Part shown: positions 55,457 to 62,920 of the stretch, one piece after another
How the letters are laid out: every line of letters starts with the position of its first letter
Numbering within the stretch: the first letter of the stretch is position 1
DNA from: Bauldia litoralis
GTDB lineage: Bacteria; Pseudomonadota; Alphaproteobacteria; Rhizobiales; Kaistiaceae
DNA length: 64,000 bases
NCBI GenBank assembly: GCA_945882315.1
Contig: CAMCWB010000007.1
Span: 1 to 64,000, forward strand
Direction of reading: 5' to 3'
Notes under the pieces: generated by a model
What the model was told of the DNA's origin: nothing
Database searches by the model: none
Seen by the model: only the letters and a program-made list of their open reading frames with translations
Position numbers and translations under genes: made by a program

Positions 55457-55475
55457 GGCTTGAACCCTCGCCACA

Positions 55476-55506
55476 GCTCCGTATATACTCGAGGTATATA
55501 CGGAGC
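55476..55506. promoter_or_regulatory. Palindromic operator of the VapBC module
   Basis: Perfect 13-bp arms, GCTCCGTATATAC (55476-55488) and GTATATACGGAGC (55494-55506), around TCGAG. It lies 7 nt upstream of vapB, the expected position for VapBC autorepression. Confidence 0.8.
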
Positions 55507-55513
55507 ATCTGCC

Positions 55514-55741
55514 ATGGCCACCGCCAAGGTTTTCCAATCCGGCAACAGCCAGGCCGTGCGCCTGCCCAAGCAATTCCGCTTCCAGGGCAAGGAAGTGGAG
55601 ATTTTCCGCCGCGGCGACGAGGTCGTGTTGCGGGAGAAGGGCAAGGGTCTGGCGCGGGTCTTTGAAATTCTTTCGGAATTGCCGGAGGATTTCCTTGCCG
55701 ACCGCGACGACCGGCCTCCGCAGGAACGGGACGGACTTTGA
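55514..55741 (+). CDS. vapB: VapB-type antitoxin (AbrB/MazE-like)
   Basis: 75 aa from the ATG of MATAKVFQSGNSQAVRLPKQ. The N-terminal SpoVT/AbrB fold binds DNA; the C-terminus (LARVFEILSELPEDFL) wraps the toxin. Its TGA overlaps the TTG start of vapC. Confidence 0.92.
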   Translation: MATAKVFQSGNSQAVRLPKQFRFQGKEVEIFRRGDEVVLREKGKGLARVFEILSELPEDFLADRDDRPPQERDGL

Positions 55742-56157
55742 CGTCCGTCCGCTATCTCCTCGACACCAATATCTGCATTTACCTTCGGGAGCGTCGCCGG
55801 CCGGAGGTTTTGCGGCGTTTCGAGGCGGTTGCCGAAGGGGAAGCTGCTCTTTCCGCCATCACCTATGGCGAATTGGTCTATGGCGCCGAGCACAGCAGTC
55901 AGCGTGAGAAGGCGATTGCCGGCGTGCGGGAAATCCTGCAGCTCATTCCCATCCTCGACCTGCCGACCAAAGCCGCAGAGTCCTACGGAGTCTTTCGCGC
56001 CGCGCTTGCAGCAAAGGGTAGCATGATCGGTGGGAACGACCTCTGGATCGCCGCCCATGCGCATGCCGCCGATCTCATCCTCGTCACCAACAACGAACGC
56101 GAATTCCGGCGCATTCCGGAACTCCGGATCGAGAACTGGGCCGTCAGCCCCGCCTGA
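55738..56157 (+). CDS. vapC: VapC-type PIN-domain ribonuclease toxin
   Basis: 139 aa starting at TTG overlapping the vapB stop (TTGA). PIN-domain acidic residues: LLDTNICIYL, the Glu in ITYGELVYGAE, GGNDLWIAAHA and LVTNNEREF. VapC toxins cut tRNA or rRNA; the target is unknown. No gene follows before the dnaK promoter. Confidence 0.92.
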   Translation: MTSVRYLLDTNICIYLRERRRPEVLRRFEAVAEGEAALSAITYGELVYGAEHSSQREKAIAGVREILQLIPILDLPTKAAESYGVFRAALAAKGSMIGGNDLWIAAHAHAADLILVTNNEREFRRIPELRIENWAVSPA

Positions 56158-60385: not shown

Positions 60386-60958
60386 ATGGCTTCGCCGAAA
60401 ATTCTCGTATTCGCCGGCTCGATCCGCACTGGCGCGCTTTCCGGCAAGCTTGCCGCCGCCGCCGCCAAGGAACTGGCGCTCAACGATGCCGAGGTGACCA
60501 AGCTGTCGCTCGCCGACTACGAGCTGCCGATCTACAATGGCGACTTCGAGAAGGAGAAGGGCGTTCCCGAGAACGCCAAGAAGCTCGCCCGCCAGATCGC
60601 GGCGCATCAGGGCGTCTTCATCGCGACGCCCGAATACAACAGCACGATGCCGCCGCTCCTCAAGAATGCGATCGACTGGGTGAGCCGCATCAAGCCGGGC
60701 GAAATCCCTTACCGCAACCGCGTCTATGGCGTCGGCTCGTCGTCGGACGGCCCGGTCGGCGGGGCGCGGGCGCTGATCGACGTCCGCAAGATCATCATGC
60801 CCGGGCTGGGCGCTATCGTGATCCCGGAGAAGATCGAGGTCGGCCGCGCCGGCGAGGCCTTCGACGAATCCGGCAATCTGATCGCCGAGGCGCCGGCCAA
60901 ACTCCTCAAGGGCCTCTGCAAGCACCTCGTCGAGCTGGCAAGGCGGCTGGTCGACTAG
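60386..60958 (+). CDS. NADPH-dependent FMN reductase (ChrR-like)
   Basis: 190 aa with GGGGGG before the ATG. Flavodoxin-like fold: VFAGSIRTGALSGKLA (phosphate loop), ATPEYNSTMPPLLKNAIDWVSR and GVGSSSDGPVGG. Members reduce FMN, chromate or quinones; the substrate is not evident. It stands alone between pmtA and a repeat element. Confidence 0.9.
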   Translation: MASPKILVFAGSIRTGALSGKLAAAAAKELALNDAEVTKLSLADYELPIYNGDFEKEKGVPENAKKLARQIAAHQGVFIATPEYNSTMPPLLKNAIDWVSRIKPGEIPYRNRVYGVGSSSDGPVGGARALIDVRKIIMPGLGAIVIPEKIEVGRAGEAFDESGNLIAEAPAKLLKGLCKHLVELARRLVD

Positions 60959-60999
60959 GCCGTGGCGCGTTGAGGTTGGACCAATGTCGCCAGCCCCAT

Positions 61000-61090
61000 C
61001 CGCTCGTCCCCGCCGAAAGCGGGGACCCAGGGTGACGAATTCAGGTCATGCCATGGGCCTTGGATTCCCGCTTGCAGCGGGAATGAGCGG
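61000..61090. repeat. Interspersed palindromic repeat
   Basis: Terminal inverted repeat CCGCTC/GAGCGG (61000-61005, 61085-61090) enclosing two hairpins: GTCCCCGC/GCGGGGAC (61006-61013 and 61019-61026) and ATTCCCGCT/AGCGGGAAT (61064-61072 and 61076-61084). The layout resembles extragenic repeats common in Rhizobiales. The rest of the 232-bp gap before lepB shows nothing further. Confidence 0.75.
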
Positions 61091-61190
61091 AGTATGGTTG
61101 GATTTCCTCTCCGTCTCCTCCCGCCCAAAGAACCCGACAAGCCGACTTGACGTAGGCTCGCCTCGTCGAAGCGGAAAAGAGAGCTTCGAC

Positions 61191-62105
61191 CTAATCCAGC
61201 CGCTTCCCAATCCGGGTGAGCGTCGGAGACCAAAAGATACCAGTCGCCTTTCCGAGAATATTATCGATAGGCACAAAGCCGATGGTTTGATCGCGGCTGT
61301 CCTGAGCTTCACGCCGATTGTCGCCCAACAGGAAATAGTAGCCGGCAGGAACTGCATAGGTGCTCAGCCCATCCGCCGGTGAGTGAGCCTCCGTATCAAG
61401 CGTCTGATATGCGGCCGCGCCTTCGATCGATTCCTGAAAGCATTTTCTTTCCTTAGCGGGAGGGCCTGCTTCCGTCTCACCGCAGGATTCGGATGGTTCG
61501 CGCGCCACTGTCATGCCGTTGATGGTCAAGGTTCCGCCGAGAATTTCTATCCTATCCCCGGGCAGTCCGATGACGCGCCTGACATATTCATGCTGAAGAT
61601 TTGGCATCGAAAAGACAACAACGTCCCCGCGATCGGGAGACCGTCGACTGAAAGCGTGCATATCCACGACAAACCGGTCGCCCGGCCGAAGGGCCGGCTG
61701 CATCGAGTTGGTCGGTACGGAGAATGTTCTCAAAGTACGTTCGTTCAGCGGCAAGCCGATAATCAGAATCAGCGCTGCCGCTCCCACATAGACCCACCAG
61801 CGATTATAGCCGCGCAGTTCGTAGGCGCGGCTCTGAAGAGCAATGCGTACTGAGTCGATCAGAAAGAACACGTAGGCGAGGATGCCGAAACAGCCAAAGG
61901 TAACGGTTATCCATGGCTGGGCGAGGAATCCCCAAAGCCCGTGCCAAATAATAAAAAACGGCCCGAATATGAGCGTCGCGGCAATCAGCGCGCGGCGAGG
62001 ACGGCCGAGATAGAGGTAGCCGACATGGGGAATGACCAAGGACATAAGGGCCGCGAGCCAAGCGCGGCGTGGCCGTACCAAAGAAAGCCGATCCGGCTGC
62101 GTCAT
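61191..62105 (-). CDS. lepB: Signal peptidase I homologue, catalytic Lys replaced by Arg
   Basis: 304 aa from the ATG of MTQPDRLSLVRPRRAW. The N-terminal third has about four hydrophobic segments with a TM2-like GYLYLGRPRRAL. The peptidase part has the nucleophile Ser134 in PTNSMQPAL, DRGDVVVFSMPN, and box E GDNRREAQDSRD. In the box that normally reads YVKRVIGLPGD, this protein has YVRRVIGLPGD: Arg176 (AGG, 61578-61580) stands where the general-base Lys should be. It may be inactive. The DNA looks lower in GC than its neighbours, suggesting transfer. Confidence 0.85.
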   Translation of the reverse strand: MTQPDRLSLVRPRRAWLAALMSLVIPHVGYLYLGRPRRALIAATLIFGPFFIIWHGLWGFLAQPWITVTFGCFGILAYVFFLIDSVRIALQSRAYELRGYNRWWVYVGAAALILIIGLPLNERTLRTFSVPTNSMQPALRPGDRFVVDMHAFSRRSPDRGDVVVFSMPNLQHEYVRRVIGLPGDRIEILGGTLTINGMTVAREPSESCGETEAGPPAKERKCFQESIEGAAAYQTLDTEAHSPADGLSTYAVPAGYYFLLGDNRREAQDSRDQTIGFVPIDNILGKATGIFWSPTLTRIGKRLD

Positions 62106-62215: not shown

Positions 62216-62920
62216 ATGCCTGTTCCTCCCCAAGACCGCCTGATCGTCGGCCTCGACGTGCCGACGATTGCCGAAGCCGAAGACATGGTCGCCCGGCTCG
62301 GCGACAGCGTGAGCTTCTACAAGGTCGGGCTGCAGCTCGTCTTTGCTGGCGGGCTCGCTTTCGCGGGCACGCTGGCAGAGGCCGGCAAGAAGGTCTTTCT
62401 CGACGTAAAACTCCTCGACATCGACAACACGGTCGAGGGCGCCATCCGGAACATCGCGCGGATGGGCATGACTTTCGTGACGCTGCATGCCTATCCAAAG
62501 GCGATGCGGGCGGCGGTGAAGGCGCGCGGCGACGCGTCGCTCGGCCTTCTCGGCGTCACCGTGCTGACCTCGATGGACGATAGCGACCTCGCCGAGGCGG
62601 GCTACGAGGGCCGGGTCGAAGACCTCGTGCTTCGCCGCGCCAGAGATGCGCGCGACGCCGGCATGACGGGGATCGTCTGCTCGCCTGTCGAGGTAGCCAA
62701 GGTCCGGGCGATCGTCGGGCCGGACATGGCCCTCGTCACCCCCGGCATCCGTCCGGCCGGTGCCGAACCGGGTGACCAGAAGCGGGTGACGACGCCATCC
62801 GACGCCATCCGCGCCGGGGCGGATTACCTCGTCGTCGCACGGCCGATCCTGAAAGCCGCCGACCCGAAACGGGCCGCCGAGGCTATCCAGGCGGAAATCG
62901 CGTCGGCGCTCCAGCGCTAG
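62216..62920 (+). CDS. pyrF: Orotidine 5'-phosphate decarboxylase
   Basis: 234 aa from the ATG of [16 protein letters not shown]. Catalytic [33 protein letters not shown] and [14 protein letters not shown] are family motifs. It makes UMP. No ribosome site is visible before the ATG. It is divergent from the lepB homologue. Confidence 0.97.

What the first reader, a model, noticed from the sequence alone, without database searches (positions are those of the whole stretch)
61191..62105. Signal peptidase I homologue with catalytic Lys changed to Arg
The conserved YVKRVIGLPGD box reads YVRRVIGLPGD here (Arg176, codon AGG). In E. coli LepB the matching Lys145 is the general base, and Lys to Arg should abolish or sharply reduce cleavage. 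The Ser134 nucleophile, box E and the 42-residue Ser-to-Arg spacing are all kept, so this is a single-site change in an otherwise intact gene. An extra TM2-like membrane region precedes the peptidase part. It could be a dead paralogue with a binding or inhibitory role.
Basis: partly seen in the sequence, partly recalled or inferred. Interest (0 to 1): 0.55.

Follow-up and report, generated by a model that had tools for sequence, protein, structure and literature searches.

The report
Probably inactive signal peptidase I relative
A second copy of the enzyme that trims export tags off proteins has lost the amino acid it should need for cutting, and a relative carries the same change at the same place, so it is probably a non-cutting version kept for another job.

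Summary
In detail: the gene at 61191-62105 (-) is an S26 signal peptidase I homologue whose general-base Lys is Arg176 (AGG). A sequencing error is very unlikely. One of the 27 other family genomes searched (G006) has a full-length relative, 40% identical, at the same spot between an FMN reductase gene and pyrF, and it also has Arg, by another codon (CGC). The Arg box occurs in exactly these 2 of 397 genomes drawn from the order. A normal Lys-bearing lepB lies elsewhere in the genome.

"Single-site change in an otherwise intact gene" is wrong: the residue that steadies the catalytic Lys in E. coli (Ser278) is Ala in both Arg proteins. Active-site boxes are still better conserved between the two than the rest. 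My reading: an inherited, very probably non-cleaving paralogue with an added N-terminal membrane domain, perhaps holding signal peptides or membrane segments without cutting them. Dead signal peptidases with another role are known (streptococcal SipA). Other paralogues in this order have lost Ser, Lys or both. No activity or role was tested; decay in the window's lineage is not excluded.

The parts
61191..62105 (-). S26 signal peptidase I homologue, 304 aa, Arg at the general-base position
   Evidence: predicted structure, mean pLDDT 86.2
61740..62105 (-). N-terminal helical membrane region (residues 1-122; predicted helices 15-24, 26-32, 36-54, 64-91, 103-122)
   Evidence: no Pfam family above its cut-off; a similar region in G006 and several relatives in the order
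61704..61706 (-). codon of Ser134 (TCG), the conserved nucleophile position
61578..61580 (-). codon of Arg176 (AGG), in place of the catalytic Lys (E. coli Lys145)
61305..61307 (-). codon of Ala267, in place of E. coli Ser278, which steadies the catalytic Lys
   Evidence: role of Ser278 from PMC4049620 (passages)
60386..60958 (+). NADPH-dependent FMN reductase gene, left neighbour of the insertion site
62216..62920 (+). pyrF (name from recall; ATG at 62216 is my choice of start), right neighbour of the insertion site

Best explanation
It is an inherited paralogue of signal peptidase I that keeps the fold and the Ser position but has lost the general base (Lys to Arg) and the residue that steadies that base (Ser278 to Ala). 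It therefore very probably does not cleave. It is anchored in the membrane, with an added N-terminal helical domain. Most likely it holds signal peptides or membrane segments in the conserved cleft without cutting, as a chaperone, decoy or assembly factor. Shown: sequence, predicted fold, second lepB, Arg-bearing relative at the same site, Ala at the Ser278 position. Inferred: loss of cleavage (established Ser/Lys chemistry) and the binding role (analogy with SipA).
For: A canonical Lys lepB is present in the same genome. G006 has a 40%-identical full-length relative between the same neighbours, also Arg, codon CGC against AGG. The Arg box is in 2 of 397 genomes drawn from the order and 1 of 398 drawn from the phylum (the window's own; G006 was not in that draw); the same pattern with Lys rings in 59 of 61 genomes. 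None of the other 26 family genomes has a full-length relative, nor an SPase hit in the held flanks of pyrF. Of 71 distinct S26 ORFs held, 60 of 63 Lys proteins have Ser at the 278 position, while 6 of 8 non-Lys proteins have Ala, both Arg ones included. Active-site boxes B to E are 36 of 59 identical between the two Arg proteins against 81 of 236 elsewhere, Fisher p 0.0003. The predicted fold matches E. coli signal peptidase at Z 21.7 and SipA at Z 16.3. The protein has only 4 Lys, none in boxes B to E.
Against: No activity data. The Lys/Ser278 coupling is not significant once kinship is allowed for (3 independent pairs on starred branches, median p 0.5). The best tree does not join the two Arg proteins: the window's groups with Lys-bearing G062/G137 (97/81), G006's with non-Lys paralogues of G009, G012, G015 (95/51); holding the two together is not rejected (p-AU 0.329). 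The window gene's GC3 (0.63) is well below that of five neighbours (0.82-0.89), of the own lepB (0.84) and of G006's copy (0.91), which may point to relaxed constraint or replacement. Ser134 is kept, which a pure binder would not need. Passages of PMC12984324 say that Ser278 also hydrogen-bonds bound ligand in LepB, so Ala there could weaken binding too. The neighbours are housekeeping genes and name no client.
Confidence: 0.6

Rival explanations
1. A functionless, decaying gene in the window's lineage: activity was lost in an ancestor and nothing now keeps the protein.
For: GC3 0.63 against 0.82-0.89 in five neighbours; long end branch of 1.74; full-length relatives in only 2 of 28 family genomes. 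A promoter scan found no sigma-70-like site around the gene, but 0.5 are expected by chance, so this says little.
Against: Intact 304-codon frame; active-site boxes more conserved than the rest between two Arg proteins 40% identical; Arg kept although its codon differs, AGG/CGC; N-terminal domain and C-terminus retained in both.
Confidence: 0.22
2. A working peptidase with unusual chemistry: Arg176, possibly with substrate help, activates Ser134.
For: Ser134, Thr132 (at the place of E. coli Ser88, an oxyanion-hole residue by recall), Gly261 and most of box E are kept; Ser is kept in both Arg proteins although the paralogues in G012, G015 and G104 lost theirs.
Against: Arg is normally a very poor general base (established chemistry); the residue that steadies the Lys is Ala; no Lys in boxes B to E.
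Confidence: 0.13
3. A single-base sequencing or assembly error (AAG read as AGG at 61579).
For: One base separates AGG from AAG; no reads could be checked.
Against: The relative in G006 has CGC, at least two bases from any Lys codon, and both proteins carry Ala at the 278 position.
Confidence: 0.02

Closest known systems
Bacterial signal peptidase I (LepB/SPase I, S26; Pfam PF10502, NCBIfam TIGR02227)
   Same: Domain, predicted fold, Ser nucleophile position, most of boxes B to E, predicted membrane anchoring
   Different: General-base Lys is Arg; Ser278 is Ala; an extra N-terminal helical membrane domain; shorter Ser-to-base spacing (42 against 61 in the genome's own LepB)
Streptococcus pyogenes SipA, a signal-peptidase-like pilus assembly factor
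   [quoted passage not shown] Z 16.3)
   Different: SipA has Asp/Gly for Ser/Lys and sits in a pilus gene cluster; here Ser is kept, Lys is Arg, and no pilus genes were seen in the stretch looked at
Staphylococcus aureus SpsA
   Same: Second SPase I homologue described as inactive beside an active SpsB (PMC12445088, passages)
   Different: SpsA lacks two conserved catalytic residues according to that passage; its sequence was not compared here
Other S26 paralogues in the same order with lost Ser and/or Lys (G009 His; G012, G015 Ala/Phe; G104 Asn/Gly; G101 Gly; G248 Gln)
   Same: S26 domains without the Lys; G104, G101 and G248 also match the N-terminal region. G009, G012 and G015 have a Lys-bearing SPase as well; this was not checked for G104, G101, G248
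   Different: Other replacements; in G009, G012 and G015 the match covers the peptidase part only

Membership tests
Active signal peptidase I (S26) | Family profile above curated cut-off | tested here: met
   PF10502 129.4 bits (cut-off 22.9); TIGR02227 130.2 (cut-off 47)
Active signal peptidase I (S26) | SPase I fold | tested here: met
   On a predicted model (mean pLDDT 86.2): Z 21.7, 2.6 A over 171 residues to 1t7d_A
Active signal peptidase I (S26) | Ser nucleophile (E. coli Ser90) | tested here: met
   Ser134 aligned
Active signal peptidase I (S26) | Lys general base (E. coli Lys145) | tested here: not met
   Arg176, AGG
Active signal peptidase I (S26) | Ser278 equivalent that steadies Lys145 | tested here: not met
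   Ala267; 3 of 63 Lys-bearing proteins also lack this Ser, so it is not strictly defining
Active signal peptidase I (S26) | Cleavage of signal peptides | not testable with these tools
   Needs an assay
Catalytically dead SPase I homologue (SipA/SpsA kind) | SPase fold with the catalytic dyad broken | tested here: met
Catalytically dead SPase I homologue (SipA/SpsA kind) | No peptidase activity, with or without another role | not testable with these tools
   Inference only
SipA pilus assembly factor | Encoded in a pilus/sortase cluster | tested here: not met
   Genes read between 53138 and 63999: a malic-enzyme-like gene, a PIN pair, dnaK, dnaJ, pmtA-like, FMN reductase, pyrF, dapB, gpmA (names or recall). 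The rest of the window was not examined for pili
   No TM2 family listed for 6 N-terminal regions; weak DUF6677 (E 0.19) for the window protein, DUF5683 (2.5e-5, 24.7 bits, cut-off 26.7) for the G063 relative

The most novel reading that the evidence does not exclude
A clade-specific Ser-Arg signal-peptidase-like protein, fused to its own multi-helix membrane domain, that either captures signal peptides or membrane segments without cutting, or cleaves by a so far unseen Ser-Arg mechanism; and this bacterial order repeatedly turns S26 paralogues into proteins without the Lys.
Probability: 0.3. Interest if true: 0.55.

Novelty: new variant of a known kind. Interest (0 to 1): 0.33.

Why it matters
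Signal-peptidase relatives without activity are described in Gram-positives (SipA, SpsA; passages). I saw none with Arg at the base position among the papers listed by my searches (one search listed 10 of 286, and most subscription papers are not in the library). A natural Ser-Arg version shared by two genera at 40% identity is a clean test of whether this fold has a non-cutting job outside Gram-positives. It also warns that a high profile score for 'signal peptidase I' (130 bits here) does not imply activity.

Tried and rejected
Sequencing error: set aside because G006's relative has Arg by CGC. Arg as a common natural variant: not borne out, 2 of 397 drawn from the order and 1 of 398 drawn from the phylum. 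The two draws overlap, family members G007, G012, G015, G017, G025, G026 and G027 were not in the order draw, and the pattern misses boxes that differ elsewhere; its Lys twin rang in 59 of 61, missing G003 and G032. TM2 family for the N-terminus: not supported. Plasmid relatives: 416 records match, all under 60% identity, 1 covers at least 80% of the query; I did not check residues there. The genome-contig scan gave one distant Gemmatimonadota relative with Ser changed to Ala and Lys kept. Substitute base near the site: the only Lys are K218, K221, K286, K301; H172, four residues before the Arg, looks too far (inference; no coordinates could be measured). A second structure prediction (own LepB, alignment) was prepared but not run, since side-chain geometry could not be read out.

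Results against the coupling argument: the kinship-aware test had 3 independent pairs, median p 0.5. The plain Fisher test (p 1.5e-5) ignores kinship and the fact that most Lys rows are ordinary LepBs. Among the rows aligned by eye as N-terminal-domain paralogues, three Lys rows (G050, G265, G281) also lack the Ser, and two non-Lys rows (G104, G101) keep it.

Full report
What is there. The gene at 61191-62105 on the minus strand codes for 304 residues. It matches Pfam Peptidase_S26 (129.4 bits, cut-off 22.9) and NCBIfam sigpep_I_bact (130.2 bits, cut-off 47). Alignment with solved LepB and SpsB puts Ser134 on the nucleophile and Arg176 on the catalytic Lys. The Arg codon is AGG at 61578-61580. 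AlphaFold2 gives mean pLDDT 86.2 and pTM 0.71. The model's residues 124-304 match E. coli signal peptidase at Z 21.7, 2.6 A over 171 residues (1t7d_A), and residues 118-297 match S. pyogenes SipA at Z 16.3.

The genome has a normal signal peptidase. A family search of the window's own genome found 2 S26 loci. The other lies on contig C10 and has YIKRVIGLPGD, between genes that I read as acpS and rnc (those names from recall). So the window gene is a paralogue, and loss of its activity need not harm the cell (inference).

The Arg is shared. Among 61 genomes (own and relatives), the best match after the window's own is in G006, 197.8 bits over residues 10-301; the next best of any genome is 117.6 bits and covers the peptidase part only, while G049 and G050 match from residue 10 at 92.9 and 82.1 bits. 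G006's protein is 40% identical and reads YLRRVIGLPGD with codon CGC. In both genomes the gene lies between the FMN reductase gene and pyrF and points the opposite way to both. In a search of 28 family genomes only these two have a full-length match. I looked at the pyrF flanks of the same 28 genomes (29 loci, up to 1.5 kb each side, less at contig ends): an SPase hit lay there in these 2 and in none of the other 26. Of the 26, eight have an FMN reductase gene of 60-70% identity upstream of pyrF with no SPase between (gap under 270 bases in seven, about 890 in G001); seven have a more distant FMN reductase hit (35-43%); eight have the pmtA-like gene as the nearest hit; G009, G012 and G015 showed too little to judge. 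I read this as one insertion in an ancestor of the two genera, later kept.

How rare it is. A DNA pattern for [ILV]-R-R-[ILV]-[IV]-G-[LF]-P-G-[DE] (it also admits a few other codons) found 2 of 397 genomes drawn from the order, exactly G000 and G006, and 1 of 398 drawn from the phylum, the window's own; G006 was not in that draw. The twin pattern with Lys rang in 59 of 61 genomes, so the pattern is sensitive for ordinary boxes. The two draws overlap.

The active site is changed twice. In E. coli, Ser278 is involved in stabilising Lys145 (PMC4049620, passages); passages of PMC12984324 add that it hydrogen-bonds ligand. Both Arg proteins have Ala there. From all loci held at that point I took 89 S26 ORF hits, dropped 18 duplicates and kept 71. 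Lys-bearing: 63, with Ser at this position in 60, Ala in 2, Thr in 1. Without Lys: 8 (Arg 2, Phe 2, Gly 2, His 1, Gln 1), with Ala in 6 and Ser in 2 (both Gly). A plain Fisher test gives p 1.5e-5, but with kinship allowed for there are 3 independent pairs and median p 0.5, so this is suggestive only.

Is it under constraint? Between the two Arg proteins the boxes B to E are 36 of 59 identical, against 81 of 236 elsewhere (p 0.0003; I set the box limits). By box: B 10 of 17, C 3 of 12, D 11 of 15, E 12 of 15, so box C is not conserved. If Arg was ancestral, this suggests that the cleft region has mattered since. Against it: the window gene's GC3 is 0.63, while five neighbours are 0.82-0.89, the own lepB 0.84 and G006's copy 0.91. 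The tree of 71 S26 domains puts the window protein with Lys-bearing G062/G137 (97/81) and G006's with the non-Lys paralogues of G009, G012 and G015 (95/51), on long branches. Joining the two Arg proteins is not rejected (p-AU 0.329). If the tree were right, Arg would have arisen twice, or one copy was replaced. The shared site and the rarity make one origin likelier to me.

The N-terminal region. Residues 15-122 are mostly predicted helices, the last of which leads into the peptidase domain. Similar regions precede S26 domains in G006, G062, G104, G341, G063 and, more distantly, others including a Gemmatimonadota contig. No Pfam family passes its cut-off there in the six regions scanned.

Mechanism. 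By established Ser/Lys chemistry, a protonated Arg is a poor base. With Ala at the 278 position as well, I judge cleavage unlikely. The retained fold, the conserved boxes B, D and E and the added membrane domain fit a protein that binds signal peptides or membrane segments without cutting; this step is inference. The nearest precedent is SipA: its catalytic residues are replaced and no peptidase activity was seen, yet it is essential for pilus polymerisation and keeps the peptide-binding cleft (PMC4049620, passages). SpsA of S. aureus is described as inactive and dispensable (PMC12445088, passages). The neighbouring genes name no client.

Novelty. Catalytically broken S26 homologues are known. 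The Arg/Ala site with an N-terminal membrane domain in this order is a new variant of that kind. The papers listed by my searches held nothing on point (listings only, 10 of 286 shown). The library misses most subscription papers, including the original LepB mutagenesis work, which I know only by recall and have not seen.

Noticed in passing
G009:C175, G012:C3, G015:C184 (L037, L038, L041); G104:C45 (L077): Three genomes of the window's family carry other S26 paralogues with broken sites (G009 Lys to His; G012 and G015 Ser to Ala with Lys to Phe), and G104 has Ser to Asn with Lys to Gly: repeated loss of the dyad in S26 paralogues.
   Followed up: partly
window 61191-62105: GC3 of the gene is 0.63 against 0.82-0.89 in five neighbours and 0.91 in the G006 copy; unexplained.
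   Followed up: partly
window 60999-61091: Imperfect inverted repeat, 34-nt arms 79% complementary, in the gap between the FMN reductase gene and the gene's stop; CCCGCTTTCGGCGGGGACGA from its left arm occurs once in the window with up to 3 mismatches.
   Followed up: no
window 55460-56157: Small ORF with an AbrB-like look (by eye) overlapping the start of a PIN-domain ORF (PF01850, 69.8 bits): perhaps a VapBC-type toxin-antitoxin pair.
   Followed up: no
L033 710-1645: Gemmatimonadota S26 homologue with an N-terminal membrane region and an NRWWVYVG motif, Ser to Ala but Lys kept.
   Followed up: no
L036 10754-11470: G006 has a third, Lys-bearing S26 paralogue close to dnaK.
   Followed up: no
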